Both the position numbers and the translations under genes were made by a program. From Pseudomonas sp. R84 (GTDB taxonomy: Bacteria; Pseudomonadota; Gammaproteobacteria; Pseudomonadales; Pseudomonadaceae), in contig NZ_CP019426.1 in the NCBI RefSeq assembly GCF_009834515.1, positions 4,267,501 to 4,331,500 on the forward strand: a DNA stretch of 64,000 nucleotides. The letters are read 5' to 3'. Shown here piece after piece: positions 58,222 through 64,000 of the stretch (its first letter is position 1; each line of letters begins with the position of its first letter). The notes under the pieces were generated by a model. That model ran no database searches. It saw only the letters and a list, made by a program, of their open reading frames with translations, and was not told the DNA's origin.

Positions 58222-59751
58222 ATGAACCGCAGCGACGTCCTGATCATCGGCGCCGGCCCGACCGGGCTGGTACTGGCCCTGTGGCTGAGCAAACTCGGCG
58301 TGCGCGTGCGCATCATCGATAAAACCTCCGCACCCGGCACCACATCGCGGGCCCTGGCGGTGCAGGCGCGCACCCTCGAGTTGTACCGGCAACTGGACCT
58401 CGCCGACACAGTGGTGCGCAACGGCCATCGGGTCGCGGCGGCGACTTTCTGGGTCAACGGCAAACCGGTCGCGCAGTTGCCACTGAACCGCATCGGCGCA
58501 GGCCTGACGCCCTACGCGTTCGTCGAAATCTTCCCGCAGGATCAACACGAACGGCTGCTGATCGAGCGTCTCGAGGACTACGGCGTCACGGTCGAGCGCG
58601 ACACCACACTGGAAAGCTTCGAAGAAACCGGCGACGGCCTCACCGCGCATTTGCGCCTGCCCGATGGCGAGCAGGAAATCTGCCAGGCCTGTTATCTGGC
58701 CGGCTGTGACGGCGCCCGCTCAGTCGTGCGCAAAACCCTCGACACCGGTTTCCCCGGCGGCACTTATCAGCAGATTTTCTACGTGGCCGACGTCAAGGCC
58801 AGCGGCCCGGCAATGAACGGCGAATTGCACCTGGATCTGGATGAAGCGGACTTTCTCGCCGTGTTTCCTCTCGCCGGCGAAGGCCGCGCAAGGCTAATCG
58901 GCACCGTGCGTGATGAACGTGCGGATCGCGCCGAAACCCTGGAATTTTCCGATGTCAGCAGCCGTGCCATCGATCACTTGAAAGTGCATATCGAAGATGT
59001 GCACTGGTTCTCGACCTACCGCGTGCATCACCGCGTGGCCGAGCATTTTCGCAGTGGTCGCGCGTTTCTGCTCGGCGATGCCGCGCATGTGCACAGCCCG
59101 GCGGGTGGTCAGGGCATGAACACCGGCATCGGCGACGCGATCAATCTGGCGTGGAAACTTGCCGCTGTGCTCAGCGGCGCCGCCGAGCCGAGCCTGCTCG
59201 ACAGCTACGAAACCGAACGCATTGCCTTCGCCCGCCGATTAGTGTCGACCACCGATAAAGTCTTCAGCTTCGTCACCGCCGAGGGGCGCATGGCTGACTT
59301 GCTGCGCATGCGCGTGGCACCGTTTCTGATCCCGAAAATGGCCTCGTTCGAGGCCAGTCGCGAGTTCCTTTTTCGCACTGTGTCGCAAGTCACCCTCAAC
59401 TATCGCGGTATGCCGCTGAGCCAGGGCGCAGCCGGCCACGTGCACGGCGGTGACCGTTTGCCGTGGGCGCATGATGGTGAGGGGGATAATTACGAATCGC
59501 TCAGACAGCCGTGCTGGCAGGTGCATGTCTACGGCGACACCAGCGACGAAATGATTGCCTGGTGCCACGAACATCACTTGCCGCTGCATGTGTTCGACTG
59601 GCGGCCGGCGTTTGACACGGCGGGGTTGGGGCGAAACGGTTTTTACCTGCTGCGCCCGGATACCTATGTGGCGATTGCCGATAACAGTGCGGATCCGAAG
59701 GTGATCGAACGCTACTTTCGGGAGCATGGTGTCCGACCTTACTTTCCTTGA
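58222..59751 (+). CDS. FAD-dependent monooxygenase (PheA/TfdB family)
   Basis: 509 aa. The FAD-binding GxGxxG is VLIIGAGPTGLVLAL at about 7-20. The DG motif is YLAGCDGARSVVRK (near 160-170) and the GD motif is FLLGDAAHVHSPAGGQGMNTG near 285-300. A C-terminal thioredoxin-like region follows (about 400-509). Such enzymes hydroxylate phenols or aromatic polyketides with NAD(P)H and O2. GGAGGACAGG is a strong ribosome binding site. No degradation cluster adjoins it, so the substrate is open. Confidence 0.88.
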   Translation: MNRSDVLIIGAGPTGLVLALWLSKLGVRVRIIDKTSAPGTTSRALAVQARTLELYRQLDLADTVVRNGHRVAAATFWVNGKPVAQLPLNRIGAGLTPYAFVEIFPQDQHERLLIERLEDYGVTVERDTTLESFEETGDGLTAHLRLPDGEQEICQACYLAGCDGARSVVRKTLDTGFPGGTYQQIFYVADVKASGPAMNGELHLDLDEADFLAVFPLAGEGRARLIGTVRDERADRAETLEFSDVSSRAIDHLKVHIEDVHWFSTYRVHHRVAEHFRSGRAFLLGDAAHVHSPAGGQGMNTGIGDAINLAWKLAAVLSGAAEPSLLDSYETERIAFARRLVSTTDKVFSFVTAEGRMADLLRMRVAPFLIPKMASFEASREFLFRTVSQVTLNYRGMPLSQGAAGHVHGGDRLPWAHDGEGDNYESLRQPCWQVHVYGDTSDEMIAWCHEHHLPLHVFDWRPAFDTAGLGRNGFYLLRPDTYVAIADNSADPKVIERYFREHGVRPYFP

Positions 59752-59883
59752 ACTCGATGGCGTATTCAGCATGACACTTCAGCATGCCAGCATTATGCTA
59801 CCGTCTACCGCCGTTCACTCCCGCGATGTTGCCTGATTGAAAAATCGTAGAACCGCAAAATACATCCTTATAAGGACTGATAC

Positions 59884-61614
59884 ATGCTAGGGATTTTGGT
59901 ATATCTCGTCGCTGCAGTATTGATTTTATTTTTCTACGTTCTGGTATTTCCAACACAGGACTTCTTCTATCAACTGATTGGCGCGTTGATTGTTAGTCTT
60001 CTGGTCTGGGACATGACCACCAAGCGATACCTGCTAAAAATCAGCAGAATCTTCGCCATCCAATGGGAACGGCAAACCGAGCAGTTTTTCTGCGCCCCCA
60101 GCGAAACGAAACTGACAAAGCTGAAGCTTTTTCGACGTAAAAGAAACGACGAAATCACACCTGTCTATATCGAGAAGCTCTCCGTTAAATCTTCTGCAGC
60201 CATGATAGTCACGCTGCAGGGTGAAAAGAACGTCAAGCAGGCCGCGACTCTTGGCTTTCAACATTTCAAAGTCCTCGCGCAAAAAGCCGCCAAATGGCAG
60301 GCTTATCGCAAGTATCTTCTCAGGGAGGCCACCGTGGACTTCCCACTAATACACAAAATTGCCGACACACTTGCTCCTCCCTCAGAATACGTGACCGGCG
60401 ACGACCTTAAACTCACCTCCGACAACGATTTCCTCAAGAGACTGGCAACAACCAGTAAAGAGGTCGTGCACATATTCACCACAACGTCGCAGCTCTCCTC
60501 GGACTTCATCACCACCGTTGCCAATCACAAGAAAGATATAAAAACCCTGCACTTTTATATTTGCAGTCCTTATATCCAGAGTCATAAGTCTCTGCTCGAC
60601 CTGACGCAAGAATATGAAAATCCTGCCTTCACCCGGCAGAAGGGACAATTCGTATGCAACGACGATGACAGCGTTCATGTCGAAGCCGATATGGTTCGCC
60701 GCATGATCAAGATTCTCGGCGCGATTCGCGAACTTGCCAGGCTGACGAACCAAGTCAACATCGAACTACACTTCTTCACTCAGCGTTATCCGGGCGTCAA
60801 GATCAAGGCACTGGAGCAAAAAGGCTACGCGCAGATACAACCAGGTCCTCTTTCCTACGCCAACAACCTTTATCGGTTTGCCGTTGATGTGAAGGAGTCT
60901 GAACATAACCAGTTACTGCAAAAAGACCTGGCAGCCTTCCGCCAGAGTGGCAAGATCGAGACCATTGAGTTGAAGGCTTCGTCAGGCAAACCCGTTGGCG
61001 AGCAAGCCGTCAAAGAAATGTGCCAATGGCTTTGCAGCCGGGGCATGACGGAGAAGAAACTGCAAGCAATGCATTCGCGAATCAAGGACATTGCCAAAGA
61101 CGCTGACTCGGACAAGATCATCAACGACATCTTTCTCAGGCTTGAAAAGGTAACCGACGTTCTTGCGCAAGGTGATCAGGTCTGTGAAGTGCTTGCGCCC
61201 GATGGTTCGGTGACTCATTTCTCCACAGGATTGATCATTGAAAAAGACGACAAGTTGCTGCTGATAAAAAAGGCTGACCCCTTCTACAAAGAAAAATACA
61301 GCATTGTCGCCGGACACGTGAACCGCCATGAGACGCCTGTAGAAGCGATCAAACGGGAAGTTTATGAAGAGCTGGGATTAACCCTGAGTAACCCGCGACT
61401 GATCACGCCAGCCTTCGAACTCAACGATGCCTGCCGTCATAACGCGGACCGACACCTCTGGTTTGTCTTCAAGGCCGATTTACCGGATGGTGACTATCAA
61501 CTCGACAGCAGCGAAATCAGCAAGACCAAACTTGTCCCTATAGCCGACCTCAAGGCAGACCTTCTGACCCCAGGTGCACTTGGCGTAATGAAGAAATTGA
61601 GTTATATGCCATGA
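59884..61614 (+). CDS. Membrane-anchored protein with C-terminal Nudix hydrolase domain
   Basis: 576 aa. Two hydrophobic segments at the N-terminus (about 3-22 and 28-42) anchor it in the inner membrane. A cytosolic middle region (about 50-430) has no motif I recognise; it includes VHIFTTTSQLSSDF, TLHFYICSPYIQSHK and NIELHFFTQRYPGVKIKAL, alternating beta/helix as in a ligand-sensing alpha/beta domain. The C-terminal Nudix domain (about 440-570) has a perfect box from G477 through E483, R491-E492 and E495-E496 to G498. AAGGACTG precedes the ATG. The stop overlaps the next start (ATGA). The DNA is more A/T-rich than the flanking genes. Confidence 0.8.
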   Translation: MLGILVYLVAAVLILFFYVLVFPTQDFFYQLIGALIVSLLVWDMTTKRYLLKISRIFAIQWERQTEQFFCAPSETKLTKLKLFRRKRNDEITPVYIEKLSVKSSAAMIVTLQGEKNVKQAATLGFQHFKVLAQKAAKWQAYRKYLLREATVDFPLIHKIADTLAPPSEYVTGDDLKLTSDNDFLKRLATTSKEVVHIFTTTSQLSSDFITTVANHKKDIKTLHFYICSPYIQSHKSLLDLTQEYENPAFTRQKGQFVCNDDDSVHVEADMVRRMIKILGAIRELARLTNQVNIELHFFTQRYPGVKIKALEQKGYAQIQPGPLSYANNLYRFAVDVKESEHNQLLQKDLAAFRQSGKIETIELKASSGKPVGEQAVKEMCQWLCSRGMTEKKLQAMHSRIKDIAKDADSDKIINDIFLRLEKVTDVLAQGDQVCEVLAPDGSVTHFSTGLIIEKDDKLLLIKKADPFYKEKYSIVAGHVNRHETPVEAIKREVYEELGLTLSNPRLITPAFELNDACRHNADRHLWFVFKADLPDGDYQLDSSEISKTKLVPIADLKADLLTPGALGVMKKLSYMP

Positions 61615-62330
61615 CGATCGTCATCAAATTGCCCGGTGCAGGCATGATCAAGAAGGGGCCGTCGACCTCGAGTATCGACTGGCTAAGCTACCGCGATTAT
61701 CGGATCGACGCCGACTTTTACCGTGATCTTCTCAAACTGATTTCATCTCAGGATAACACTCAACAATGGGTGATCGTTTCCGGCGGAGTGGGCTCGCACC
61801 TGCAGACCAACTTCGCCAGAGAAATGCATGCCAGCGCTGACGAGCTGAAAGCGATTGGTACCGATCACGTGCGAACGCTGCAGAAAGTCTTCCTCTCGTA
61901 CTGCAGCAGATCTGGCGCCAGCGTGCATGAAGTACTGGTGCCCGTCACCGAGCTGAATGCTGTTATGGCGGACAGCCGCGCAACGATCTTCTTTGTCGAT
62001 CCAGACATTCGTTATGCCTCCACCGATACTTTGGCAGCCGCAGCAGCTCAAGCCATCGCGGCAGACAAGTTGATCGTCTTCAAAGCCAAGGTTCCGGTTT
62101 TCTCAGCCGGGTTCCCCACTCCGACTCGCATCGAAAAATGGCCGATAGCCGATCTCGGAGCGCGCGCAGAATCATTCGAAGCACAGAACCCTGGGCATTA
62201 CATCATGGACAGCGCATCGGTGCAGATCATCCGCAGCGCTGGAATTTCGACCTGGCTGCTTGCCCCGGATAACTATATAGCCCTGTTTGATCCCGAGCAG
62301 TGCGAGAGTGCCACGGAGATAGTGCTATGA
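61611..62330 (+). CDS. Amino-acid-kinase superfamily protein, UMP-kinase-like
   Basis: 239 aa, close to PyrH (about 240). The N-terminal phosphate-binding strand is VIKLPGAGMIKKG, followed by WVIVSGGVGSH (55-63) in place of PyrH's GGGN motif. The acceptor/ATP region TDTLAAAAAQAIAADKLIVF (138-157) corresponds to the DTTAA...GAD segment, and the last third has HYIMDSASVQIIRSAGIST like PyrH's MDxxA. This supports a nucleoside-monophosphate kinase fold. Its sequence is clearly not the housekeeping PyrH. It is coupled by ATGA overlaps to genes on both sides. Confidence 0.7.
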   Translation: MTIVIKLPGAGMIKKGPSTSSIDWLSYRDYRIDADFYRDLLKLISSQDNTQQWVIVSGGVGSHLQTNFAREMHASADELKAIGTDHVRTLQKVFLSYCSRSGASVHEVLVPVTELNAVMADSRATIFFVDPDIRYASTDTLAAAAAQAIAADKLIVFKAKVPVFSAGFPTPTRIEKWPIADLGARAESFEAQNPGHYIMDSASVQIIRSAGISTWLLAPDNYIALFDPEQCESATEIVL

Positions 62331-62890
62331 GTGTCTGGAGCGATACCGACATCCTCAACGGGCATAATGGTGAAGATTTGCAGATAGTTGACTTCAATCC
62401 TGATTGTCTGCGCTCTTCCAGCTATCTGTTGCGCTTGCACGACCGAATGCTGGTTCGACAATCGACCGCTGTCACCATCGATAGCCGTTCGACTGACACC
62501 GCCGCGTTATTCACCGAAGTCCAAATACCGCCAGAAGGGTATGTACTCGAGCCGGGGGTGCTTTACCTCGCCTCGTCCGTGGAAAGACTGCGGCTGGGGA
62601 ACAACGTATGTGCCGAGATGGGTCTGTTGTCCTGCTATGCACGCATTGGCATGAATCTGAACTTTGGCTCCAACTTTATCGCCGCGACCTTCGGCGAGCG
62701 CGAGCCCTCGAGATTGACACTCGAGATCATTAATCTGTCGCGAGATAACATTCGCCTGTATCCCGGTGTCAAGCTCTGTCACCTGCGTGTGCATCAGCAA
62801 CGCTCCCCCAGCCGCACTACCTACTCAGGGATTTATGCAGCCGGGGAGCAGACACTACCGACAAACTTCAACCTCAAGCCAGCCCGCTAG
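62327..62890 (+). CDS. dCTP deaminase-family protein
   Basis: 187 aa, start at 62327 in an ATGA overlap with the kinase gene. Matches the dUTPase/dCTP-deaminase fold: LRSSSYLLRLHDR (substrate loop), LEPGVLYLASSVERLRL, then SCYARIGMNLNFGSN and RLTLEIINLSRDNIRLYPG. Catalytic positions of E. coli Dcd (S111, R115, E138) correspond to S102, R106 and E133, all conserved. It should convert dCTP to dUTP (or a related nucleotide). It differs from the housekeeping enzyme outside these motifs and ends 18 bp before convergent hemB. Confidence 0.83.
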   Translation: MSVWSDTDILNGHNGEDLQIVDFNPDCLRSSSYLLRLHDRMLVRQSTAVTIDSRSTDTAALFTEVQIPPEGYVLEPGVLYLASSVERLRLGNNVCAEMGLLSCYARIGMNLNFGSNFIAATFGEREPSRLTLEIINLSRDNIRLYPGVKLCHLRVHQQRSPSRTTYSGIYAAGEQTLPTNFNLKPAR

Positions 62891-62908
62891 GTGCTGGCGG
62901 CGGGCTAT

Positions 62909-63883
62909 CTAGATCCCGGCCAGCGCCAGATCCATCGCAAAGTAAGTGAAGATCAGATCCGCACCCGCGCGCTTGATCGCGCCGAGGCTTTCACGGACCA
63001 CGCGATCCTCATCGATCGCCCCGGCCTGTGCGCCGAACTTGATCATCGCGTACTCACCACTGACCTGATACGCCGCCAGCGGCAGGTTCGAGGCTTCGCG
63101 GATGTCGCGGATGATGTCGAGGTACGCGCCAGCCGGTTTGACCATCAGCGCGTCGGCACCTTCTTGCTCGTCGAGCAGTGATTCGCGCAAGGCTTCGCGG
63201 CGGTTCATCGGGTTCATCTGATAGCTTTTGCGGTCGCCTTTCAGCGCGCTGCCACCGGCTTCGCGGAACGGGCCGTACAGTGCCGAAGCAAATTTGGTCG
63301 AGTAGGCCATGATCGGAATCTGGGTGAAGCCGGCCGCGTCCAGTGCCTGGCGAATCGCCCGCACCTGACCGTCCATCGCCGCCGACGGCGCGATCACATC
63401 AGCACCGGCACGCGCCGCTGCCACGGCTTGTTTGCCGAGGTTGATCAGGGTCTGGTCATTGTCGACTTCATGGTTGTGCATCACGCCGCAGTGGCCGTGA
63501 TCGGTGTATTCGCAGAAGCAGGTGTCGGACATCACGATCATCTCCGGCACGGCATCCTTGGCAATGCGCGACATGCGCGAGACCAGACCGTCGTCGCGCC
63601 AGGTGTCGCTGCCGTTGCTGTCCAGATGGTGGGACACGCCGAAGGTCATCACCGACTTGACGCCGGCACGGGCATAACGCTCGATTTCGCTGGCCAGTTT
63701 GCGCTCGGGAATGCGCATCACCCCGGGCATGCTCTTGATCGGCACGAAGTCATCGATTTCTTCCTCGACGAAAATCGGCAGGACCAGATCGTTCAGGCTG
63801 AATTCGGTTTCCTGGAACAGGCTGCGCAGGCTCGCATTGCGGCGCAGACGGCGGGGACGTGCTTCGGGGAACTGACTGGACAT
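62909..63883 (-). CDS. hemB: Delta-aminolevulinic acid dehydratase (porphobilinogen synthase)
   Basis: 324 aa from the ATG at 63883 (GGAAAGG upstream); an in-frame extension upstream is not supported. The active-site lysines are in [17 protein letters not shown] (Schiff base helper) and [15 protein letters not shown] (Schiff base). [14 protein letters not shown] holds the metal-binding cysteines/aspartates. It condenses two 5-aminolevulinate to porphobilinogen in heme synthesis. Its neighbours on the other side are outside the window. Confidence 0.96.
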
Positions 63884-64000
63884 GGGGGCCTTTCCTGAAA
63901 ACGGCAGATGAGACGAAAGTCGTAGGGGGCGAAGCTTATGCCTTGCGGGGGTTGGGGTACAAACCTGGATCAATCAAGAGTGCATTACTGGGGGTGTAAT

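What the first reader, a model, noticed from the sequence alone, without database searches (positions are those of the whole stretch)
59884..62890. Three-gene nucleotide-metabolism cassette: membrane Nudix protein, UMP-kinase-like protein, dCTP deaminase
Seen: three genes on one strand, each pair joined by an ATGA overlap, A/T-richer than the flanking genes, inserted between a monooxygenase gene and hemB. Known: dCTP deaminases that deplete dCTP during phage infection are an established bacterial defence, and Nudix and kinase folds occur in nucleotide-signal systems. Inference: the cassette could hold a pyrimidine-nucleotide circuit (phosphorylation, deamination, hydrolysis) tied to the membrane, for phage defence, stress signalling or synthesis of a modified nucleotide. 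I know of no described system with this exact trio.
Basis: partly seen in the sequence, partly recalled or inferred. Interest (0 to 1): 0.86.

Follow-up and report, generated by a model that had tools for sequence, protein, structure and literature searches.

The report
Rare inserted three-gene nucleotide-enzyme cassette
One bacterium carries an inserted block of three overlapping genes for unusual relatives of nucleotide-handling enzymes, one of them set in the membrane; our searches met no second such block, so it may be a rare defence or small-molecule system, but its job is untested.

Summary
Three intact genes at 59884-62890 (+) overlap by ATGA at both joints; GC is 0.49-0.55 against 0.62 in the flanking genes. 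They lie between an FAD monooxygenase gene and a second copy of hemB. In 8 same-genus relatives that keep this gene pair, the gap is near-empty (6), holds one 147-aa ORF (1) or holds three other genes (1), so the trio looks like an insertion at a variable spot. Gene 1: two N-terminal hydrophobic helices, about 400 residues matching no family, and a perfect Nudix box. Gene 2: amino-acid-kinase fold; of ten UMP-kinase positions checked it keeps five and loses three, ATP side included, so it is no canonical UMP kinase. Gene 3: divergent zinc-free dCTP-deaminase fold with catalytic Ser/Arg/Glu but not the phosphate-binding tail. No convincing relative of gene 2 appeared in 298, 398 and 369 genomes (overlapping sets), nor of gene 1's N-terminus in 398. 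Defence and small-molecule synthesis both remain possible; conserved association cannot be tested from one occurrence.

The parts
59884..61614 (+). Gene 1: membrane-anchored Nudix protein, 576 aa; two N-terminal hydrophobic stretches (about 4-22 and 26-46), residues about 47-440 unassigned, Nudix domain 447-568 with perfect box GHVNRHETPVEAIKREVYEELG at 477-498
61611..62330 (+). Gene 2: amino-acid-kinase-fold protein, closest model archaeal UMP kinase, 239 aa; keeps K6, D85, T138, D139; the positions of E. coli UMP kinase S17, T138 and D174 are replaced
62327..62890 (+). Gene 3: divergent dCTP-deaminase-fold (DCD) protein, 187 aa; keeps S102, R106, E133, Y166, Y170; C-terminal KYQGQ motif replaced by IYAAG
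59752..59883 (+). Intergenic leader of the cassette, GC 0.47, with an AAGGA ribosome-binding-like sequence before the ATG; the one promoter-like match on this strand (59771) is within what shuffles give
59745..62908 (.). Approximate extent of the insertion, from where DNA similarity to the relatives stops and resumes
58222..59751 (+). Left flank: FAD-dependent monooxygenase gene, beside the same hemB copy in 8 of 17 relatives examined
62909..63973 (-). Right flank: one of two hemB (ALAD) copies, convergent with the cassette

Best explanation
A horizontally acquired accessory operon that handles a pyrimidine nucleotide, most likely a conflict (anti-phage or anti-element) module. Shown: three overlapping genes at a variable site; an intact Nudix catalytic box on a protein with membrane helices; a DCD-fold protein with its deamination residues; a kinase-fold protein in which several nucleotide-acceptor residues survive while ATP-side residues do not. 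Inferred: gene 3 deaminates a cytosine nucleotide whose phosphate state may differ from dCTP; gene 2 binds a uridine-type nucleotide as a regulator rather than phosphorylating it; gene 1, held in the membrane, is the effector that hydrolyses a nucleotide diphosphate bond when the nucleotide state changes, as in infection.
For: Site with alternative cargo in relatives, among them an exporter/ThiF/GNAT set; low GC and GC3; ATGA coupling; rarity, as with fast-turnover accessory genes; Nudix box intact; S102/R106/E133 kept; gene 2 keeps the K15, D77, T145 and D146 positions and loses S17, T138 and D174 (all but D146 named in PMC12404492, passages seen). The genome already has its own dcd, a dut-like gene and six other AA_kinase genes, one of them PyrH-like, so the trio is not needed for housekeeping. 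The DefensePredictor paper lists a dUTPase and other nucleotide-modifying domains among predicted but unvalidated defence domains (PMC13092281, passages seen).
Against: No PADLOC match for genes 2 and 3 and only a Nudix-domain match for gene 1 (PDC-S07, 1.6e-7). No recognisable defence gene among the 10 neighbouring genes scanned. No second occurrence, so joint function rests on the overlaps alone. Both structure models were too poor to use (pLDDT 44 and 38). The reading of gene 2 as a regulator rests on pairwise alignments at about 25% identity. Relatives show cargo at this site that looks like toxin or product genes, not defence.
Confidence: 0.33

Rival explanations
1. A small biosynthetic operon that makes or modifies a nucleotide-linked metabolite: gene 2 phosphorylates or binds, gene 3 deaminates, gene 1 trims or protects the producer at the membrane.
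For: In a related genome the same site holds a C39-peptidase ABC exporter with a ThiF-type and a GNAT-type gene, which looks like a bacteriocin or peptide-product set. In 4 of the 13 plasmid or phage regions fetched, a small P-loop kinase-like gene lies beside two DCD paralogs, in 3 of the 4 with a methyltransferase near by; one of these also has glycosyltransferase and Gfo/Idh genes.
Against: Only three genes were recognised in the inserted 3.2 kb, none of them a ligase, transferase or exporter. The actinobacterial kinase-like genes are of a different fold.
Confidence: 0.25
2. An accessory pool-cleaning or salvage unit: gene 3 makes a deoxyuridine nucleotide, gene 1 hydrolyses unwanted triphosphates, gene 2 is a working kinase with altered specificity.
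For: All three folds occur in ordinary pyrimidine metabolism; catalytic residues of genes 1 and 3 are kept.
Against: The genome has its own dcd, dut-like and PyrH-like genes. ATP-side residues of gene 2 are replaced. A membrane anchor and about 400 unassigned residues are unexpected for sanitation. No spread seen among relatives.
Confidence: 0.15
3. Three foreign genes that arrived together but do not form one system, or are drifting.
For: Single occurrence; no relatives to show that selection keeps them together.
Against: All three frames are intact with ATGA overlaps and kept catalytic motifs.
Confidence: 0.15

Closest known systems
dCTP deaminase, zinc-free DCD fold (Pfam PF22769, NCBIfam TIGR02274)
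   Same: Domain over the Pfam cut-off (78.9 against 27 bits); catalytic Ser, Arg, Glu kept
   Different: Below the NCBIfam equivalog cut-off (70.6 against 92.8); 20-37% identity to the relatives compared; tail motif KYQGQ replaced; four residues inserted before the catalytic Glu
Defence deoxycytidylate/dCTP deaminases such as AvcD (PMC9455884, passages seen)
   Same: Would also lower cytosine deoxynucleotide pools, if active (inference)
   Different: No PADLOC match for gene 3. PMC12088426 (passages seen) states that DCDs are zinc-independent and unrelated to zinc-dependent dCMP deaminases; that AvcD belongs to the zinc family is recalled
UMP kinase PyrH (nearest model archaeal, TIGR02076)
   Same: Amino-acid-kinase fold; K15, D77, T145, D146 positions kept, G58 on a glycine in 5 of 6 settings
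   Different: 29.4 bits against a cut-off of 158; S17, T138 and D174 positions replaced, R62 uncertain
Nudix hydrolases (PF00293)
   Same: Perfect Nudix box and domain
   Different: C-terminal to two hydrophobic helices and about 400 residues without a family; 15 NCBIfam matches, none over cut-off
Actinobacterial P-loop kinase-like/DCD/DCD operons (L089, L091, L095, L097)
   Same: A kinase-like gene next to DCD-fold genes
   Different: P-loop rather than amino-acid-kinase fold (Pfam matches below cut-off), two DCD copies, no match to gene 1 or 2 in these loci

Membership tests
Nudix hydrolase | Nudix box GX5EX7REUXEEXGU and domain over cut-off | tested here: met
   Box at residues 477-498; PF00293 56.6 against 21.1 bits
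dCTP deaminase (DCD fold) | Domain over the Pfam cut-off | tested here: met
   78.9 against 27 bits
dCTP deaminase (DCD fold) | Catalytic Ser, Arg and Glu (roles recalled) | tested here: met
   S102, R106, E133 in the alignments
dCTP deaminase (DCD fold) | Over the NCBIfam equivalog cut-off | tested here: not met
   70.6 against 92.8 bits
dCTP deaminase (DCD fold) | C-terminal KYQGQ-type tail that contacts the phosphates (role recalled) | tested here: not met
   IYAAG in place of it; some other DCDs in that alignment also depart from the motif
dCTP deaminase (DCD fold) | Turns dCTP into dUTP | not testable with these tools
   needs purified protein
Defence dCTP deaminase system | Match to a PADLOC model | tested here: not met
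   0 families at E up to 1 for gene 3
UMP kinase | Amino-acid-kinase fold | tested here: met
   PF00696 38.7 against 24.9 bits
UMP kinase | Over an equivalog cut-off | tested here: not met
   TIGR02076 29.4 against 158.05 bits
UMP kinase | Conserved active-site residues K15, S17, G58, R62, D77, T138, T145, D174 (E. coli numbering, PMC12404492) | tested here: not met
   Six alignment settings: K15 and T145 kept in 6, D77 in 5, G58 on a glycine in 5, R62 on an arginine in 4; S17, T138 and D174 replaced in 6
Conserved three-gene system | Recurrence of the trio in other genomes | tested here: inconclusive
   Own genome only; the two genome-contig scans (gene 1 N-terminus, gene 3) need exact 8-residue patterns and miss diverged relatives

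The most novel reading that the evidence does not exclude
A previously undescribed nucleotide-sensing immune or signalling system in which a former UMP kinase that has lost its ATP site reads a uridine nucleotide made by a zinc-free deaminase and controls a membrane-bound Nudix effector.
Probability: 0.22. Interest if true: 0.78.

Novelty: new variant of a known kind. Interest (0 to 1): 0.48.

Why it matters
If the trio acts on phage or on nucleotide signals, it would bring the zinc-free dCTP-deaminase fold and a degenerate UMP-kinase fold into bacterial conflict systems, at a place without recognised defence genes beside it. It also shows a variable insertion spot next to a second hemB gene that carries unrelated cargo in different species.

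Tried and rejected
Housekeeping role: set low because the genome holds a dcd, a dut-like and six other AA_kinase genes, one PyrH-like. Known defence system: PADLOC gives only a Nudix-domain match for gene 1 and, among 10 neighbours, matches only for an ABC ATPase.

Search for relatives. Gene 2 was searched in 298 genus, 398 phylum and 369 class genomes (the sets overlap). Besides the own genome, the genus search gave one hit at E 1.0e-3 (G023, 33% over 100 residues, with a stop inside), which I take as chance after reading the frame. The phylum search at E up to 0.01 gave four partial hits: one lies in a glutamate-5-kinase-like frame (name recalled), one in a 478-residue frame opposite an oxidoreductase-like frame, and two in near-identical 274-residue frames that do not look like kinases. 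All five were set aside. Gene 1 N-terminus in 398 phylum genomes: own only. Gene 3 in 398 phylum genomes: 16 with a match, own included; the other 15 are 23-37% identical. Wider context was fetched for 7 of these 15; tblastn at E up to 0.1 found neither gene 1 nor gene 2 in these 7 or in the shorter loci of all 15. The two genome-contig scans were run with gene 1 N-terminus (0 relatives) and gene 3 (1, a distant archaeal DCD). Gene 2 was not scanned there. Viral contig scans with gene 2, gene 3 and gene 1 N-terminus gave none. Plasmids: none for gene 1 N-terminus and gene 2, 27 records for gene 3. Phages: none for genes 1 and 2, 32 records for gene 3. E. coli genomes: none by DNA. Annotated regions were fetched for 12 of the 27 plasmid and 1 of the 32 phage records.

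Structure prediction from single sequences was too poor, so no fold search was run. Pfam on pieces of the N-terminal region of gene 1 gave only matches below cut-off. DUF5919, chosen from recall as a possible match for that region, rang in 0 of 40 genomes and 0 of 14 controls, so that search says nothing. The repeat search showed no direct repeat pairing the two ends of the insertion.

Literature: search listings with abstract starts only, often capped: 25 of 42 shown; 17 of 17; 20 of 29; 0 found; 7 of 7; 12 of 580; 15 of 36. No listed title or abstract start describes this trio; papers not listed were not seen. Passages only were seen of PMC13092281, PMC12088426, PMC9455884, PMC12847342 and PMC12404492. 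A 2015 survey of nucleotide-centric conflict systems (PMC4678834, title seen in a reference list) is not held and was not read.

Mended on re-reading: an earlier reading of two of the partial gene-2 hits used the wrong strand and was redone; the small ORF in L038 was checked; the neighbours were put to PADLOC.

Full report
What is there. The window holds three intact genes on the + strand at 59884-61614, 61611-62330 and 62327-62890, joined by ATGA overlaps. They are poorer in G+C (0.490, 0.550, 0.548) than the monooxygenase (0.625) and hemB (0.617) genes around them, and their third codon positions are poorer than those of the monooxygenase gene (0.59-0.65 against 0.75).

It looks like an insertion. 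Of 57 genomes searched with the hemB protein (own included), 18 same-genus relatives had a copy 85% or more identical. The region was fetched for 17 of these 18; in the remaining one, G004, the gene lies at a contig end. In 8 of the 17 the monooxygenase gene lies near this hemB copy. From the coordinates, the gap is 19 to 143 bases in 6 of the 8, 671 bases with a 147-aa ORF in one (L038), and 4.2 kb in one (L040). In the window it is about 3.16 kb. DNA similarity to the relatives stops at 59744 or before and resumes at about 62908. Gain in this lineage is the simplest reading; repeated loss in the others is not excluded. L040 holds a C39-peptidase ABC exporter, a ThiF-type gene and a GNAT-type gene. 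In L047, where no monooxygenase match was found, an RHS-repeat gene with a small neighbour lies beside hemB. So this spot takes up varied cargo. No integrase-type gene was recognised among the three genes, and no direct repeat pairs the two ends. This hemB is one of two copies in the genome.

Gene 1. Two hydrophobic stretches open the protein. Residues 447-568 are a Nudix domain (3.6e-15) with a perfect box at 477-498. The roughly 400 residues between match no Pfam family above cut-off, whole or in pieces, and no solved structure better than E 0.5. The single-sequence model is unusable (pLDDT 38).

Gene 2. It belongs to the amino-acid-kinase fold (1.2e-9); the nearest equivalog is archaeal UMP kinase, far under its cut-off (29.4 against 158 bits). 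Active-site residues of UMP kinases were taken from PMC12404492 (passages); D146 was added from the motif beside T145. Against the genome's own PyrH-like protein in six alignment settings, K15, T145 and D146 are kept in 6 of 6 and D77 in 5 of 6; G58 falls on a glycine in 5 of 6, R62 on an arginine in 4 of 6 and Y171 on phenylalanine in 4 of 6. S17, T138 and D174 are replaced in 6 of 6. The paper cites work in which changes at R62, an acceptor-site Asp and D174 of the E. coli enzyme cut activity. I infer a nucleotide-binding protein with a changed or lost donor site. At about 25% identity this is a lead, not proof.

Gene 3. It is a DCD-fold protein (5.6e-22), nearest in solved structures to the dCTP deaminases 2qxx and 4a6a. 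S102, R106 and E133 are kept; the C-terminal KYQGQ motif is not, and four residues are inserted before the glutamate. With gene 3 as query, the genome's own Dcd is not found at E 0.001, although that gene is present. Gene 3 probably still deaminates, perhaps on another phosphate state; that is inference. PMC12088426 (passages) states that DCDs are zinc-independent and unrelated to zinc-dependent dCMP deaminases. PMC9455884 (passages) describes AvcD as a deaminase acting on dCMP and dCTP with a role against phage; its zinc fold is recalled.

Surroundings. Ten neighbouring genes were scanned: TonB-dependent receptors, an oligopeptide-type ABC transporter set, an anti-sigma factor, a DUF1615 gene, the monooxygenase and hemB. 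In PADLOC 9 of the 10 have no match; the ABC ATPase matches 12 models (best mad3, 7.9e-62), which I take as shared ATPase domains. The rest of the window was not scanned.

How rare. Gene 2: in 298 genus genomes the own genome plus one marginal hit with a stop inside; at E 0.001 own only in 398 phylum and 369 class genomes, sets that overlap. Gene 1 N-terminus: own only in 398. Gene 3: 15 of 397 other phylum genomes have distant DCDs; none of these loci shows gene 1 or 2 near by, with wider context for 7 of the 15. Scans of the 84,980-species collection with gene 1 N-terminus and gene 3 gave 0 and 1 (a 20% identical archaeal DCD); these scans need exact 8-residue matches and miss diverged relatives.

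A pattern in passing. In 4 of 13 regions fetched around distant gene-3 matches (12 plasmid, 1 phage), a small P-loop kinase-like gene lies beside two DCD paralogs (L089, L091, L095, L097). Kinase-plus-DCD sets thus occur elsewhere, though with another kinase fold and no match to gene 1 or 2; whether they make a metabolite or defend the cell is not known to me.

Verdict. The cassette is real, foreign in composition, intact and rare. The best reading is an accessory nucleotide-handling module, more likely for conflict than for housekeeping, with a small-molecule pathway as the main rival. The mechanism with a regulatory ex-kinase and a membrane Nudix effector is inference. The literature listings seen (several of them capped) show no paper on this trio.

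Noticed in passing
L089:4438-7472, L095:2865-5918, L091:713-3309, L097:3974-6251: Actinobacterial plasmid modules with a small P-loop kinase-like gene next to two DCD paralogs; L089 and L095 also have a cytidine-deaminase-like gene (Pfam match below cut-off) and a methyltransferase, L091 a methyltransferase.
   Followed up: partly
window:62909-63973: The hemB gene here is one of two copies in the genome; 18 other same-genus genomes of the 57 searched have a copy 85% or more identical to it.
   Followed up: no
L040:6052-10193: The same site in a relative holds a C39-peptidase ABC exporter, a ThiF-type gene and a GNAT-type gene, perhaps a peptide-product cluster.
   Followed up: partly
L047:5088-10274: Beside the same hemB copy in another relative lies a 1609-aa RHS-repeat gene with a small neighbouring ORF, like a polymorphic-toxin pair.
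   Followed up: no
L038:5911-6354: The same site in a further relative holds a single 147-aa ORF of unknown kind.
   Followed up: no
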